The notes under the pieces: generated by a model
Told to the model about the DNA's origin: nothing
Database searches by the model: none
Seen by the model: the letters and a program-made list of their open reading frames with translations, nothing else
Made by a program: the position numbers and the translations under genes
In this document: in pieces, positions 15,110 through 47,015 of the stretch
How the letters are laid out: each line of letters starts with the position of its first letter
How positions within the stretch are numbered: the stretch's first letter is position 1
NCBI GenBank assembly: GCA_026874595.1
Contig: CM049318.1
Coordinates: 58,500,250 to 58,564,249 of the forward strand
DNA from: Sipunculus nudus
Taxonomy: Eukaryota; Annelida; Sipuncula; Golfingiida; Sipunculidae
Length of the DNA: 64,000 nucleotides
Direction of reading: 5' to 3'

Positions 15110-16640
15110 TACACTTACACGAAACTATAAACAAGACGACCATAGGTCACGCGCTTGCCGGAAACACTCTGACCCAGACTGGAAGACAGATAATGAGAGC
15201 ATGTAATAAAGAAGACAAAGAGGAAACAATGAGCCATTGTTTGTAAAGTTTGGACCAATATTGAAACAGTTACGATGGAAATAATAATCTGACGTGTTTC
15301 CATGACTTTGACCTATTTAAAAATAAATATACAGCTTCAAGAATTCTTTCCAATATACGATAGGTGAAAGTTGCAAAGTGATTCCTGGTAAACTGTGGCC
15401 TATAGAATGCTATTATAACAAAGGCAAGAACCAGCAAGAAGGCAACATTTAGGACAACTTGCAAACAGACAGAAATATTGACAAAGTAACACAAAGTTGA
15501 GATCAGTTGACTAGACTTAGTTATGTAGAAGACGATGGTGAAAAAAAAATGAGCCAAGTTTGTGAAGATAGGACCAGAATGGACAAAGTTATGAGAAAAA
15601 TAACATTTTTAAGTGTTTTGAAGTGACCGACATGCTGACAAAGCGGGACAAAGTAGAGACAAAAAGACTTAACTATGTTATGAAGGAGACAACGGAAAAA
15701 AATAAGCTACAGTTTATGAAATTTAGGTTTAAAGTCTCAGAGATATGGGCAAAAAATGATATGTTCTAGTGTTTCAGGTTCAGTGCCCCCTAGCGGCTAT
15801 TACCGAAACTGAAAAATCATTTTCGAGAGATTAGTGTAGGACTTAAGATGTATCAGTTTCAAAAGGATTCCTGCAAAACTGTGGCCTGTAGAATGCTATA
15901 TGTTGAGACAAGAACAAGCAAGAAGGCGAAATTGATGACACCTGACAGATAGACAGACATACTGTCAAAGTGACACAAAGCTGAGGCCAGATGACTTGAC
16001 CTAGTTATGGAGAAGACTCAGGGGAAGAAATTAAGCTATAGTTTATGTAATTCAGGTGTATAGTATCGGAGATATTGTCAACAAAGTTATACGTTGATGA
16101 AGTTTAAGTGCAGCGCCCCCTAATGGCCATATCCCGAAAATAAAAAATCAATTTTGAGATATTAATGTAAGACATAAGATTCACCAATTTCAAAAGGATT
16201 CTCGCAAAACTATGGCCTGTAGAGTGCTATATGTAAGACAGAAACACCAGCAAGAAGGTGAAATTGAGGTCAACTGACAGACAGACAGACATACTGACAA
16301 AGTGACAAAAATTTGAGCAAAGATGACAAGATGTTATGAAGAAGACACAGAGGAAGAAAATGAACCTAAGTTTGTAAAGATAGGACCAATAGTTACAAAG
16401 TTATGATGAAAATAAAATTTCGACGTTTTTTGATGACCTTGACCTTTAACTTATGCCTACCAAAAACAATAGGCTACCAGGACTTTTGACTTTCAATCAA
16501 CCCTGAAAGTTTCAGATCGATTGCTTAAAAAATTGTGGCCAGGGGAGTACTGACAAACAAACAAACAAACAAACAAGCAAACATCGTGACAAACAGCCAT
16601 ACGCAACTGACCAACATTCTTGCCGAAATCGAAGATTTCC
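15110..16640. repeat. Degenerate tandem repeat, unit about 330 bp (one 480-bp interval), three to four copies
   Basis: AAACTGTGGCCTGTAGAATGC recurs at about 15391, 15877 and 16207. CAGCGCCCCCTAATGGCCAT or its variant recurs at 15781 and 16111. GACAGACAGACATACTGACA and TGACCTTGACCTTTAA are further shared words. The CAAA tetranucleotide run at 16557-16584 lies at the right end. The short frames through this array are artefacts of the repeat. Confidence 0.65.
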
Positions 16641-29660: not shown

Positions 29661-30430
29661 TGAACTAACACTTGGTCATGTATCCCCTGCCTGGCCTCGC
29701 AATTCATTCCCCGTCTAGTCTTACATCTATTAGAGGTAATTTATTCTTCCTCCGGCCGCTCCTCTATCTTAGTCCATTTATTTCCTCTCTGTGTACGCTT
29801 CTGTTTTAGGCCACGTATCCCCTGTCTGGCCTCGTATCTTATATAGCCCATTTATTCCCGGTCTAGCTTCGGATCTATTATAGGTCTTTTATTCCCGTTC
29901 TGGTGTTCCCTCTCTGGTCTTGCATCTATTACATTCTAATCATTCCCTGTCTGGTCTCGCATTAATCATAGTCTATTTATTCCCTCTGTGGCATCGCATC
30001 TGTCATAGGCCAATTATTCAGTCTTACCTCGAATCAATTATGGTCTATTTATTCCCTCTCTGTCCTCGCATCTGATATAGCCATCTCTTAAGGACACTTA
30101 ATCTTTGTCGTGCCAAGCCTCTATTTATTCAATTTATTCCCGATCTGGCCTCCCATTTGATATAGACCATTTATTTCCTGTCGGGCCTCGCAATTATTAT
30201 AGACTAATTATTCCCTGTCTGGCCTCGCATCTGTTATAGGTCATCTATTCCTAGTCTGGTCTCTAATCTATAATAGGCCATTTATGAAATATCTGGCCTC
30301 GTATCTATTATAGGCCTTACATGTATTATTGGTAATATATTCGTCGTCTCTCCACGTAATTAAAAGGCCATTTCATCAATATCTGCCCTCGCATCTATTA
30401 TAGGTCTCGCATCTATTGTCTCTTATTTTT
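29660..30430. repeat. Minisatellite, unit about 40 bp, roughly 18-19 degenerate units
   Basis: The unit is close to CATTTATTCCCTGTCTGGCC followed by TCGCATCTATTATAGG. It repeats continuously with substitutions and small indels, ending in a T-run at 30428. Adjacent units differ from each other, so the array is not freshly expanded. Stop codons and length changes rule out a coding repeat. Confidence 0.85.
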
Positions 30431-37291: not shown

Positions 37292-37610
37292 CTATAAAGA
37301 TGGATATTCTTGGTTATGTCTGCAGTGATTGATAAATTGTTTAGCAAGCAAAATAATTATATTACTAGTCACTGAAGCATTAAAATATCCAAACAAGATT
37401 ACTGATAAACACTTATCCAATATTATCTCCTGTTTCCTACTCCATAATTCTAAACCTGACCAGAGATCAGTCACTCTATCACAATTCCAGGTTAAATGTA
37501 TTAAAGACTCCGGTTCCTCATATCGATCAGAAACAGGAAGAGAATTGATTCTTTCTAAAGTATTGTAAAAGTCTGGACAATATATACGCACTTTCGGAAC
37601 AAAGATTTAA
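37292..37610 (-). pseudogene. LINE reverse transcriptase C-terminal zinc-knuckle (zf-RVT) fragment
   Basis: The 99-codon frame contains EEPESLIHLTWNCDRVTDLW, the characteristic tail of many LINE reverse transcriptases: Cys-x2-Cys, then ES-xx-HL-xxx-C and an aromatic W. Just before it the sequence is S-D-R-Y where the first Cys pair should be. Both are one base away from Cys codons (TCT and TAT from TGT), so the zinc site has been lost. The frame closes at 37292 with no further motif. Related but frameshifted LINE-like residues (HYIVPFKQWTNRDI) extend to about 37790, where a small LTR element has been inserted. The clade is unassigned. Confidence 0.7.
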
Positions 37611-37783
37611 TGAGGTAACCTGACTGCATACACTTTCTTTCTTAATCCCTGTTATCATCGCTTACCACACCGGAAAATCTGCCCCAGGTATATCTCTATT
37701 TGTCCATTGTTTAAAAGGTACAATATAATGGTTTAGAAACAAATCTGACCCAGTAGTTATCCCTGCATCTATACAACTTTACC

Positions 37784-37788
37784 AATAG
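37784..37788. other. Left target-site duplication AATAG
   Basis: AATAG here and at 38325-38329 exactly flanks the small LTR element. Five bases is the usual size for LTR retrotransposon integration. Confidence 0.6.
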
Positions 37789-37850
37789 TGTGACGAGGTG
37801 TCATAAAAGTTGACCGAACCGTCTCGCTAGCAAAGCTTGCCACCAACATG

Positions 37851-37861
37851 GGTTCGAATCC
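37851..37861 (+). promoter_or_regulatory. Pol III B-box-like site in unit 1
   Basis: GGTTCGAATCC, the canonical tRNA T-arm/B-box word. The A-box part of this unit is deleted (about 39 bp shorter than unit 2), so it is probably inactive. Confidence 0.6.
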
Positions 37862-38079
37862 GGGATCGGCCTAGTATTCTCCCTGAACAATTTGTCTTCG
37901 TAACAAAAGGGGGGCCGTCCAACGTGACGTACGGTAAAATTTGTGGCCTAGGGAATAAGCTCACCAAATGTGACTTCTGGGATAATTAGTCTTGTTCTGA
38001 TAGCAGAACGCTCTTAAGAGGGGGTGTGTTACGGGGTGACATAAAAGCGAACCGAACTGCCTCGCTAGTGAAGCTGGCT

Positions 38080-38145
38080 TTGCTAGCGAAGCGGTAAGTA
38101 CACCGGACTTGTGCGCCACCCACATGGGTTCGAATCCGGGATCGG
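38080..38145 (+). ncRNA. tRNA-like segment in unit 2
   Basis: TTTGCTAGCGAAGCGGTAAG supplies a D-arm/A-box-like word. CACCGGACTTGTGCGCC resembles an anticodon arm with TTGTG in the loop position. GGTTCGAATCC at 38127-38137 is the T-arm. The acceptor stem does not pair convincingly, so this is tRNA-derived, not a tRNA gene. Confidence 0.5.
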
Positions 38146-38223
38146 CCCAATGTTTTCCCCTGAACGATTTGTCTTCGTAACAACATAAAAGCGGACCGAA
38201 CTGTCTCGCTAGTGAAGCTTGCT

Positions 38224-38290
38224 TTGCTAGCGAAGCGATTGGTACACCGGACTTGTGCGCCACCCACATGGGTTCGAATCCGGGATCGGC
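38224..38290 (+). ncRNA. tRNA-like segment in unit 3
   Basis: It shows the same layout as unit 2, with TTTGCTAGCGAAGCGATTGG and GGTTCGAATCC at 38271-38281. The two units are nearly identical here, more so than in the flanking parts. Confidence 0.5.
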
Positions 38291-38324
38291 CGAATATTTT
38301 CCCTGAGCAATTTGTCTTCGTACT

Positions 38325-38329
38325 AATAG
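38325..38329. other. Right target-site duplication AATAG
   Basis: Matches 37784-37788 and follows CTTCGTACT, a slightly altered form of the CTTCGTAACA terminus. Confidence 0.55.
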
Positions 38330-38876
38330 TCCGGTTCTGCAGTTAATATTTACATTTTATTATTCCGTATTATATGTTGTCTCAGGAACTACTTCAAAAT
38401 ACTTTGTGCAGAAGATTATTTCTTGATAAAAAAATAGGCGTTTTTAAATTATTTATTTTATTTGGATACAAATTATTATTTCATTAAAATTTTGTGTTTG
38501 GACAAATTTTTTCCATATGATAATCAAAAAGAGCTTTCCAGTTTTATTTACTGATTTAAGGTATATTCAATCCATGAATTCTTACTTTTCGTCTATCCCA
38601 AATGAAGACAGTATGCAGTTTGAAATTAAGTCTTAACATGTTTTTGTAATATTTTGTCAATAGGTTGCACTGTAAGTCTTTATTGTGGATAATCATAACA
38701 GTACGAATGACAGAAAATAAAATAAATATAAAATACTATTGCGAGCATCGATTTCAGTGATGACCAGCTTGTTAGAAATTTTGTCTCGAGTGCAAATAAC
38801 AAAAAAAAACTAATTCCTTGTTTCAATGTATTATTTTTTTCAATTTCGTTTGAATGGTGAAGTTTCCATTATACAG

Positions 38877-39032
38877 TGAAACGCTGGTGGGCACCATGGT
38901 CTGCGTGGAGTCGATGTACAAGAACTTGTGGACGTGGCGAGATATCTAGGAATAGAGCGTGGTGCACTGTGGCAGACTGCAGAGGTGTATTTGAAACTCA
39001 ATATAAGGCATGCTTCACAAGAACATGTCCGG
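38877..39032 (+). CDS. Thrombospondin type 1 (TSP1) exon 1 of a host gene
   Basis: Read with one base from an upstream exon, the 156-bp exon encodes WAPWSAWSRCTRTCGRGEIS followed by a Cys pattern ending CFTRTCPG. It has the stacked WxxW aromatic ladder, the CxxxCGxG start and six Cys in all, as in a TSP1 module of about 52 residues. TSP1 modules are extracellular and bind glycosaminoglycans or partner proteins. The acceptor is ATACAG at 38871-38876 and the donor is G-GTAAAGT at 39033. Both borders are phase 1, so the exon can be duplicated or skipped without a frame change. There is no stop inside. The next exon is 347 bp away. A decayed relative sits at 11.7 kb. The gene identity cannot be told from the modules alone. 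Confidence 0.85.
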
Positions 39033-39379
39033 GTAAAGTCTGATTTTACATTTGTTTCTCTGACATATCACTTAATCTTATTAATGTGAAATTAATGTAT
39101 AATTCATGATTTTTTTAATGGAGCTCATGAACAGAAATATTTATAAGTGTACACCCATAATTGATAAACATAAGAGAATAAATGTTTAATATAATTGTAT
39201 ATAAGGAATTGTGTATTTAAGGAACCCCAGTATCTCAATTAAACAAAAAAATTAATATTGCTGCAAGCACATTACTGAGCCAAATCCACCTCTGTTAGTT
39301 ATTATATTTGAGTCGTTAACTTGGTGTTATGTGCTATTAACTAACATGGAATTGACTTTTTATGTTTTTATGACAACAG
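39033..39379 (+). other. Intron between the two TSP1 exons
   Basis: This 347-bp intron has GTAAAG at its 5' end and TATGACAACAG at its 3' end, with T-rich sequence in the last 40 bases. It is A+T-rich and has no repeats. It is far shorter than the flanking non-coding sequence. Confidence 0.75.
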
Positions 39380-39538
39380 GTGCTATGTGGATTGGTTGGT
39401 CATATTGGACGCCTTGCTCAAAGCCATGTGGTGCCGGATACCACTTAAGACATCGTAGCTGCACTATCCCTAATAGTTGTTATGGAGTCGATACACAGGA
39501 TAAAACATGCCTGAGGGGAACGTGTACAGCTACAGGAG
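39380..39538 (+). CDS. Thrombospondin type 1 (TSP1) exon 2 of the same gene
   Basis: The 159-bp exon encodes AMWIGWSYWTPCSKPCGAGY, then an RHRSC block and a tail CYGVDTQDKTCLRGTC. It has the WxxWxxW-like ladder, the CxxxCGxG and R-R layers, and six Cys, a complete TSP1 module. Its tail (VDTQDKTC) parallels that of exon 1 (FETQYKAC), so the two probably arose by duplication. The acceptor is ACAACAG at 39373-39379 and the donor is GAG-GTAGGT at 39539, again phase 1 on both sides. No further TSP1 exon was found from here to the window end. The product would be a secreted or membrane-anchored multi-TSP1 protein. Confidence 0.88.
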
Positions 39539-39539
39539 G

Positions 39540-41045
39540 TAGGTCATCATATGTGAAACCCATTCTTCACCAGAGGTACTCAACATCAGAGCCCGGTCTC
39601 CCAACACATAACAATAATAATATTATTGTGCTAATATTTTACCTTATAGACCACCTCTGTCAGACGCCTGAAATACATTTGAATTATATTGGTATTGAAA
39701 TAATTCAACTGATTTCATTAAACAAAATAAGCATTTCCCTGCCCGTTTCTTAACTCAGAATTGGTATATACAGCTAGTCGGTATCTGGTATGTAGGAAAA
39801 GACACAAGTCTGGAATATCCGTTTGCAACGTACTGCCCTCCGTGCGTTCAAAAAGAACCGACCACTATATAATGTTTTATAACCTCATGAATAGACTCCC
39901 CTAATTGCTGAGGGTACTAGCAGTCTTTGTATCTCTGTCTTACAGTCACAATGGGTGACAACTTCATGTATTGGATTAGAGCTCAGCAAACATTAGGACG
40001 TTGTTTATGAACTTAATTTAAACTGTATATACCAATATTACGCTAAACCACCCGTGGTTAACGACCAAGGAATATTTATTTTTTTGACTGGTCATGGTCC
40101 TGTGTCATCATGGTCAACCCTTAATAATTGTTATTATTAGGCACCTGGTATGCCAATACATTGATTATTTGTCAATTAATGGTGTTATTGGTTTTCCTAC
40201 GCCCTAGCTGTCCATTCTATTTAAGCTGTCGCGTAACGTAATGCTATACGATTAAAGCTGAATCTCCATCGATTCCCCGTAATTCTTTTCTATATCTTTC
40301 GCATATGTTTCATTTCTATCCATTGTATTTTTACATTGTTTGAGAAAATAAAATCATTAACAATACAATTCGGGGAAGAGGAAGATAATGTATCCATGTC
40401 ACCCCCCCCCCCCCCACCCCCACCCTCCCCAACCTCATCCTTGATAGATACGACCCTGTCCTTAATTTGAAAGTAAAACCTGATGGTAAACTTCATTCGT
40501 TACACGGATGTTCCGTTAAGCAGGTAGTATATTGGCTTGGTATGTATAAATCGGGACATGACGTTGAACAGTAGGACGATTTCTCATTTGCCCTATCTCC
40601 ATGGGAATTACTTCTATTTTTATACATTGATTATCCCATCGACTGGACTCGACATGGACTGGGTCTGACCTCCGAGTCCGAGTTCATGATTGAGTCCGGG
40701 ACACTTGAGTTAAAGCCCGAGTACCTTACAAAGTGAATTCAGTAATATGAATGCACATCAATACTTTGTATTTTTTGCTTTTTGCAGTGTATATTTTTCG
40801 ATTGCTTATATTCCTTTTATATACCTTTTCAATACAATGGCTTTGGTTATTGTTTATAACGACTACTCATATAGATATGCCATTTCGTCATCAAAGTAAG
40901 AAAATTTAACCCTTTGTTTAAGAATATCTAGCATGGCAATTTCAGCTGTAAGCTAAAATAGTACATCCAGTGAACCCACATATTTCAAACTGGTAATTGC
41001 CTCTTTTCATTATAATTAAAACCAATTGGCACTTCCTAAATAAAT
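39540..41045. other. Presumed intron sequence with a C-run and GAGTCC-rich stretch
   Basis: After the exon 2 donor no further exon was recognised. C-rich sequence at 40400-40431 (14 C, then CCACCCCCACCCTCCCC) could form a quadruplex on the minus strand. A GAGTCC-type degenerate hexamer stretch at 40638-40725 resembles those at 11.2 and 36.65 kb. Confidence 0.45.
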
Positions 41046-45817: not shown

Positions 45818-47015
45818 TCGCTAGGCTGCATTTCCAGGGACATGACAGGGCTTTATTTGAAATTCAAATTTAGCTGACAGCCAGAAGAGCTGCCTTAGAT
45901 AATGCATTACCTGCGTATTTCTGGTAGAGCCTTTGTTAAGCATGCCTAGGGCACACATGCTGTCCGTGTGCACAACCACTGTGTGGCCCTTCCACCAATG
46001 TCCCCACGTCCTGGCTGCAGCTATCACTGAGAGCACTTCTTTATAGTTAATATACAGGCCAGCGACTTTAGGCAAATCTGCTTCCCATAATATATATTGC
46101 CAGTCGTTATTAAAATATATTCCAAACGCTTTCTTGGATGCATCCAGATAGACATGTACATACGATGGGTTCGGCTTGAAATATCTTTTCCCATTAAAAC
46201 GCTCAAGATAAGCTAGCCACCAGCGAATATCTTTAAAGAATTCTCTGCTGAGAATGCGTGTGTGATTTGGTATCTTTAACAGGGCCTTTTTATATAGTAT
46301 GCGGCGCAAAAATACTTTTCCACCAGACACCACCAAGGACGCCCAGGATAGCCTGCCTGCGAGGCTTTGCAGCTGGCGTAGCGAAGCGCGTTTGCGCGAA
46401 CTGAATGTGCGCAGCATATATTTAAAATCATTTAGCTTGTTTTGTGGGAGTGCTACCCGGTTAATGGAGCTGTCAATTTCAACCTCGAGAAATAATAGCC
46501 AAGTAGATGGTCCGCATACCTTACCCCAGCCGATCCCAAAACCCAGGTCCCTATGTAATTCAATAAGTTTGTTTTGAGCCAGTTTACACTCCGCCTGAGA
46601 TGGTGCTACTATAAGGAAATGATCCAGGTAGACCACTATTGAGTTAAAACCCATGTTAACCATCACCCTTTTTACCGATTGTGTTAACCTTTGAAAAATT
46701 CCTGGGGCCTTCCGGCGTCCGAAAGGTAAACGTGTGTCATATAAAAAGGTATGGGTGTTGCTGTTGTGATACTTCCATTTAATCCCCATGGCTTGGTAAT
46801 TACATGGATGGATAGGAACAGAGCGGTAAGCGATTTTTAGTCAACTTTAGCCTTCAAGTTACCATTTTTAACCAAACGTAAGGCGTCAGCTACCGTTTCA
46901 AATGAGAAAGGCTCTATCACGGAGCAATAGTCGTTTACTGACAGGCCATGAGGAAGACTACAGTCATGAATTATTCTAACATCATCGCTGTCCGGCTTTG
47001 GCTAGATTTTGGATC
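45818..47015 (-). pseudogene. DIRS-like reverse transcriptase and RNase H, inactivated
   Basis: The intact 322-codon part (46789-45821) covers the reverse transcriptase palm from LPFGRRKAPGIF, and RNase H. Upstream, in broken frames, are RIIHDCSLPHGLSVNDY and LRLVKNGNLKAKVD (46840-47010), the start of the domain, separated by an in-frame TAA and a frameshift near 46835. The catalytic YLDD is YLDH (residues 54-57 of the long frame, 46619-46630), which removes the second metal-binding Asp. RNase H keeps Asp216 (YLDAS), Glu251 (YKEVL) and Asp276 (HTDSM). It stops at CHVPGNAA, before the final Asp motif. The gene order and LPFG/DHF style point to tyrosine-recombinase retroelements of the DIRS group. 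No recombinase or methyltransferase follows, so the 3' half of the element is missing. Confidence 0.8.

What the first reader, a model, noticed from the sequence alone, without database searches (positions are those of the whole stretch)
37784..38329. Miniature LTR element whose LTRs look like tRNA-derived Pol III units
Seen: TGTTACG/CGTAACA ends, a 121-bp internal part ending in a polypurine tract, a weak tRNA-Pro-like primer site, AATAG on both sides, and A-box plus B-box words inside the LTR-like units. Known: terminal-repeat retrotransposons in miniature (TRIMs) usually have no coding capacity, and the plant Cassandra TRIM carries 5S rRNA promoter sequence in its LTR. Inference: this may be an animal counterpart in which a tRNA-like promoter has been captured into, or evolved as, the LTR. 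The third unit suggests recent LTR-LTR recombination.
Basis: partly seen in the sequence, partly recalled or inferred. Interest (0 to 1): 0.75.

Follow-up and report, generated by a model that had tools for sequence, protein, structure and literature searches.

The report
tRNA-headed miniature LTR retrotransposon (Helenus-type)
A decayed, non-coding mini-retrotransposon whose end repeats carry a tRNA-like promoter; elements of this kind were described in bivalves and other animals in 2024, so this is another example and not a new kind.

Summary
Window 37789-38325 holds a 117-bp LTR (with a 38-base gap), a 121-bp internal part, a complete 156-bp LTR (TGTTACG...CGTAACA) and a 143-bp third LTR copy lacking its first 12 bases; the LTRs are 86-92% identical. 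A B-box word is exact in 3 of 3; an A-box word 43 bases upstream is exact in LTR2, has one mismatch in LTR3 and is lost from LTR1. A purine tract precedes LTR2; the primer site is weak. Two details need correcting: the duplication is better read as 4 bp (ATAG) than 5, because then LTR3 keeps a 7-base end; and the third unit is not recent (12 of 143 positions differ from LTR2). The proposed novelty, an animal counterpart of Cassandra with a tRNA-like promoter in its LTR, is already in print: Helenus (Kojima 2024, PMC10886601), with 51 bivalve families, 4-bp duplications in animals and tRNA-Pro among bivalve primers. Copies elsewhere in the genome could not be checked: that search did not complete 8 of 8 times, and no Helenus consensus could be compared. 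Verdict: member of a known kind by anatomy. Pol III use is unproven here and, per that paper, for Helenus generally.

The parts
37785..37788 (.). 5' copy of the probable 4-bp target-site duplication ATAG (AATAG from 37784 if read as 5 bp)
   Evidence: chance identity of 4 bp at fixed positions 0.005
37789..37905 (+). LTR1 (5' LTR), 117 bp, TGTGACG...CGTAACA, with a 38-base gap that removes the A-box word at tRNA spacing; B box kept
37906..38026 (+). internal part, 121 bp; the two frames of 70 aa or more that run into it lie mostly in the LTRs and have no Pfam match
37908..37920 (+). possible primer-binding site, 10 of 13 bases to tRNA-Pro, starting 2 bases after LTR1
38016..38024 (+). polypurine tract AAGAGGGGG, followed by TG and then LTR2
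38027..38182 (+). LTR2, 156 bp, the only complete LTR, TGTTACG...CGTAACA
38041..38046 (+). TATA-like ATAAAA in LTR2; also in LTR1 at 37803 and LTR3 at 38185
38084..38094 (+). A-box word in LTR2 (TAGCGAAGCGG); the LTR3 counterpart at 38228-38238 has one mismatch
38127..38137 (+). B-box word in LTR2 (GGTTCGAATCC); also at 37851-37861 and 38271-38281
38153..38156 (+). TTTT, possible Pol III stop, 15 bases beyond the B box; also 38297-38300 in LTR3; no T run of 4 in LTR1
38183..38325 (+). LTR3, 143 bp, lacks the first 12 LTR bases, joined directly to the end of LTR2
38326..38329 (.). 3' copy of the probable 4-bp target-site duplication ATAG

Best explanation
This is a dead, rearranged copy of a Helenus-type TRIM: a non-autonomous LTR retrotransposon whose LTRs contain a tRNA-derived internal promoter. 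Shown by the sequence: LTRs, internal part, purine tract, B box in 3 of 3 units and A box at tRNA spacing in 2 of 3 (one exact), a short flanking duplication, and no Pfam domain in the two frames of 70 aa or more that cross it. Inferred, and how it most likely worked: the A and B boxes of the 5' LTR recruited RNA polymerase III; the RNA read through into the 3' LTR; a host tRNA (perhaps Pro) primed minus-strand synthesis and the purine tract primed plus-strand synthesis; reverse transcriptase and integrase came from an autonomous Gypsy-type element. Integrase would have trimmed 2 bases from each cDNA end (AA after LTR1, TG before LTR2) and made a 4-bp duplication. The copy then lost the main 5' A box, acquired or kept a third LTR through a tandem rearrangement, and decayed. 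It should now start few or no Pol III transcripts from its 5' LTR.
For: LTR repeats and ends. B box in 3 of 3 units, A box at tRNA spacing in 2 of 3; 0 exact A+B pairs in 60 Markov-1 controls. A purine run of 9 or more ends 2 bases before LTR2; 0.7% of window positions have such a run ending 0-2 bases upstream. ATAG flanks. Same anatomy as in the Helenus paper: tRNA-like LTR, TRGCY/YGG and GGTTC boxes, PBS and PPT, 4-bp duplications in animals, tRNA-Pro among bivalve primers, length 311-1263 bp, tandem arrays of LTR-11_DR. The part lengths here add up to 156+121+156 = 433 bp.
Against: The primer site is weak and depends on the length tested; at 11 bases tRNA-Ile ties with tRNA-Pro. A second purine run of similar length lies at the start of the internal part (37905-37914), and the + strand of the window has 102 such runs. 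LTR3 has lost its terminal CA (TA), so the duplication length rests on one decayed copy. ARAGORN finds no tRNA in the window and Rfam none at gathering threshold or at E up to 5 in the region, so the tRNA likeness is partial. tRNA-His, the best match, does not itself contain the A-box word used. A TTTT lies inside 2 of 3 LTRs, where a Pol III transcript from the 5' LTR might stop early. No second copy was seen: none in the window outside the element, 0 in viral contigs with 4 patterns, 0 in prokaryote genomes with 2 patterns, own genome unanswered. No Helenus consensus could be compared.
Confidence: 0.86

Rival explanations
1. A tandem array of an ordinary tRNA-headed SINE, with the 121-bp part being unrelated sequence between units.
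For: Units carry A- and B-box words, and two of them are head to tail with period 144.
Against: LTR2 has 7-base inverted ends TG...CA, LTR1 the same with one mismatch; no A-rich or simple-repeat tail follows a unit (by eye); 57 bases precede the A-box word in LTR2, whereas a SINE starts about at its tRNA head (general knowledge); a purine tract sits before LTR2; the flanking repeat surrounds the whole set.
Confidence: 0.07
2. The same kind of TRIM, but driven by an ordinary Pol II promoter (TATA-like ATAAAA in 3 of 3 LTRs), the tRNA-like stretch being a passive relic of a SINE insertion. This overlaps with the best explanation on what the element is and differs on transcription, so the odds are not exclusive.
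For: ATAAAA starts at base 15 of LTR1 and LTR2 and at the matching place in LTR3; a TTTT within 2 of 3 LTRs could hinder Pol III.
Against: The B box is exact in all three units although the units differ at 8-15% of positions, and the A-to-B distance is kept in two. With three related units this is only suggestive.
Confidence: 0.2
3. A copy of biv-TRIM, the bivalve TRIM described in 2019.
For: Same structural class; that paper reports tandem forms.
Against: biv-TRIM has 202-218-bp repeats and a 77-80-bp internal part, against 156 and 121 here. Its conserved internal segment matches this internal part at 8 of 14 bases, the chance level (null mean 7.8, maximum 11, for 500 pieces of 121 bases). 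The reverse strand of the whole element reaches 10, not compared with a null of its own length.
Confidence: 0.02

Closest known systems
Helenus (tRNA-derived TRIM, 'TRIMp3'; Kojima 2024, PMC10886601: abstract, methods, results, discussion, legends and tables read)
   Same: TRIM with a tRNA-like A/B-box sequence in its LTRs, PPT, short internal part, 4-bp duplication in animals, tRNA-Pro primer in some bivalve families, size range
   Different: No difference shown; consensus sequences could not be compared. The directly joined LTR2-LTR3 is a feature of this copy.
Cassandra (plant 5S-derived TRIM; from PMC10886601, two passages of PMC10853983, and recall)
   Same: Small-RNA-gene promoter inside a TRIM LTR
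   Different: 5S rRNA not tRNA; plants; methionine PBS
Ajax (5S-derived TRIM of nemerteans; PMC10886601)
   Same: Animal TRIM with a Pol III type promoter in the LTR
   Different: 5S rRNA not tRNA; 5-bp duplications
biv-TRIM (PMC6934838: abstract, first part of results and discussion read)
   Same: Bivalve TRIM, tandem forms and solo repeats
   Different: Repeat and internal lengths; its conserved internal segment was not found here above chance

Membership tests
Helenus | two LTRs around a short non-coding internal part, element under 1.3 kb | tested here: met
   0 of 2 crossing frames of 70 aa or more have a Pfam match
Helenus | tRNA-derived sequence with A and B boxes in the LTRs | tested here: met
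   A box at tRNA spacing in 2 of 3 units (one exact), B box in 3 of 3; no tRNA by ARAGORN or Rfam
Helenus | polypurine tract before the 3' LTR | tested here: met
   2 bases (TG) lie between tract and LTR
Helenus | primer-binding site complementary to a tRNA | tested here: inconclusive
   tRNA-Pro 10 of 13, chance 0.008-0.02; 0.06-0.29 at 11 and 16 bases
Helenus | 4-bp target-site duplication (animal families) | tested here: inconclusive
   ATAG on both sides of one decayed copy; the 5-bp reading fits the LTR end less well
Helenus | sequence relation to a published Helenus consensus | not testable with these tools
Helenus | multiple copies in the host genome | not testable with these tools
   The genome search unanswered
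tRNA-derived SINE | tRNA-headed unit with A-rich or simple-repeat tail | tested here: not met
   by eye: units end at CGTAACA or its decayed form with no such tail
biv-TRIM | 202-218-bp repeats, 77-80-bp internal part, conserved internal segment | tested here: not met

The most novel reading that the evidence does not exclude
The LTR may be laid out as a complete Pol III unit: a TATA-like ATAAAA 43 bases before the A box (where a Pol III TATA would sit if the start is 12-20 bases before that box), then A box, B box and a TTTT stop, so that U3, R and U5 would be set by Pol III signals. The stop would have to be read through in the 5' LTR and used in the 3' LTR, as a retroviral poly(A) signal is. 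A word search of the Helenus paper's main text found no TATA, TTTT or termination, and terminator once, about Cassandra.
Probability: 0.15. Interest if true: 0.45.

Novelty: new member of a known kind. Interest (0 to 1): 0.27.

Why it matters
It adds an example of a TRIM with a tRNA-type promoter and corrects the duplication reading to one that fits animal Helenus. Whether any Helenus is really transcribed by Pol III is still open according to the 2024 paper, and the TATA-like word, boxes and TTTT here make a concrete test possible. Otherwise it is ordinary.

Tried and rejected
Tandem SINE: rejected on ends, tail and internal part. biv-TRIM: rejected on lengths and on its conserved segment. 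tRNA gene or other RNA family: none by ARAGORN, none by Rfam at gathering threshold; three weak Rfam hits at E 0.69-3.4, none a tRNA and all below their gathering scores, taken as chance. Copies elsewhere: 0 in viral contigs with 4 exact patterns and 0 in prokaryote genomes with 2; these collections are not of animal genomes and may leave out records near the window, so this says little. LTR2 as RNA folds somewhat better than shuffles (z -2.45, 3 of 200 shuffles as good), partly through a hairpin around the A box; not interpreted further. Translation of the joined flanks showed no long frame running across the site, by eye. 'Recent' third unit: rejected on divergence. Whether LTR3 arose by loss of an internal part from an LTR-internal-LTR-internal-LTR array or from a 2-LTR junction could not be decided. 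An earlier count gave the LTR1 gap as 37 bases; the alignment shows 38.

Full report
What is there. Reading 37300-38900 and comparing the units gives LTR1 37789-37905, internal part 37906-38026, LTR2 38027-38182 and LTR3 38183-38325. LTR2 is the only complete one (156 bp, TGTTACG...CGTAACA). LTR1 has a 38-base gap in its middle. LTR3 starts 12 bases into the LTR and is joined directly to the end of LTR2. Aligned positions that differ: LTR1-LTR2 17 of 117, LTR1-LTR3 13 of 105, LTR2-LTR3 12 of 143 (K2P 0.165, 0.137, 0.090). No other copy lies in the 64-kb window: apart from one 22-base match of the internal part (E 0.85), all matches listed lie within the element.

Promoter-like words (consensus forms recalled). 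The B-box word is exact in 3 of 3 units and absent elsewhere in the window on both strands. Sixty first-order Markov sequences gave 0.03 such words per 64 kb and no A+B pair at tRNA spacing. The A-box word is exact in LTR2, has one mismatch in LTR3 and is missing from LTR1; one-mismatch matches are common in the window. A looser A-like word 18 bases further upstream is exact in LTR2 and has one mismatch in LTR1 and LTR3; it lies 61 bases before the B box in LTR2 and LTR3. All three LTRs align better with tRNA-His than any of 200 letter shuffles each aligned with any of the 12 tRNAs; the margin is small for LTR1 (32 against 30) and LTR3 (34 against 31) and larger for LTR2 (38 against 30). The internal part shows nothing. 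ARAGORN and Rfam see no tRNA, so this is a tRNA-derived promoter at most and not a tRNA gene.

Retrotransposon marks. A purine run AAGAGGGGG ends 2 bases before LTR2; 0.7% of window positions have a run of 9 or more purines ending 0-2 bases upstream. Another such run lies at 37905-37914. The best primer match is tRNA-Pro, starting 2 bases after LTR1, 10 of 13 bases; the chance is 0.008 (window pieces) to 0.02 (shuffles) at this length, but 0.07-0.16 at 11 bases, where tRNA-Ile ties, and 0.06-0.29 at 16. This is weak evidence. The 2-base spacers on both sides (AA and TG) are what integrase trimming of two bases per cDNA end would leave; that is an inference from general knowledge of LTR elements.

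Duplication length. Both sides show AATAG. If the duplication were 5 bp, LTR3 would end CGTACT. With 4 bp (ATAG) it ends CGTACTA, the 7-base end CGTAACA with two substitutions, and the extra A is the last LTR base. The 4-bp reading therefore keeps the element end and agrees with the 4-bp duplications reported for animal Helenus. It rests on one decayed copy.

Comparison with print. A search of the paper library led to Kojima 2024, PMC10886601. It describes Helenus, TRIMs with tRNA-derived sequence in the LTR, in fungi, plants and six animal phyla, with 51 families in five orders of pteriomorph bivalves. Boxes conserved in most are TRGCY/YGG and GGTTC; bivalve primers include tRNA-Pro; animal families make 4-bp duplications and seem to depend on Gypsy elements; tandem arrays are seen for LTR-11_DR of zebrafish. 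The author compares it with Cassandra, groups them as TRIMp3, and says Pol III function of Helenus is not experimentally shown. A search for papers with both 'Helenus' and 'retrotransposon' gave 3: this one, a meeting report that cites it (passages read), and a 2019 butterfly genome paper (listing only; it predates the name). A search for TRIMp3 gave no other relevant paper among 4. Only open papers of that library were searched. The host was not identified here; a pteriomorph bivalve is a guess from the distribution of Helenus.

Setting. The element lies on the + strand about 550 bases before a short frame that reads like a thrombospondin type 1 repeat (38861-39040; Pfam TSP_1 E 0.004, 17.8 bits, below its cut-off of 21.6), with a clearer such domain in 39256-39753 (TSP_1 E 3e-8, above cut-off). 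It may sit in an intron or upstream of such a gene; this was not resolved. The joined flanks show no long frame across the site.

Limits. The own-genome search did not complete 8 of 8 times, so copy number, family consensus and duplication statistics are missing; no Helenus consensus could be aligned. The kind is well supported by anatomy; the exact family is not known.

Noticed in passing
38861-39040 and 39256-39753: Two thrombospondin type 1 repeat coding stretches on the + strand just downstream of the element; the first below Pfam's cut-off, the second above it.
   Followed up: partly
45821-46840 (- strand): Remains of a retroelement with reverse transcriptase and RNase H matches just below Pfam cut-offs; looks DIRS-like by recall.
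   Followed up: partly
37292-37606 (- strand): A 104-aa frame next to the element that resembles the tail of a LINE protein by eye; no Pfam match.
   Followed up: partly
15675-16373: Two copies of a 331-bp tandem unit containing GCAGCGCCCCCTA.
   Followed up: no
29816-30313: Diverged 37-bp tandem repeats in three blocks.
   Followed up: no
38056-38095: Strong predicted hairpin around the A box of LTR2, containing two related A-box-like words 18 bases apart; it could be an internal duplication.
   Followed up: no
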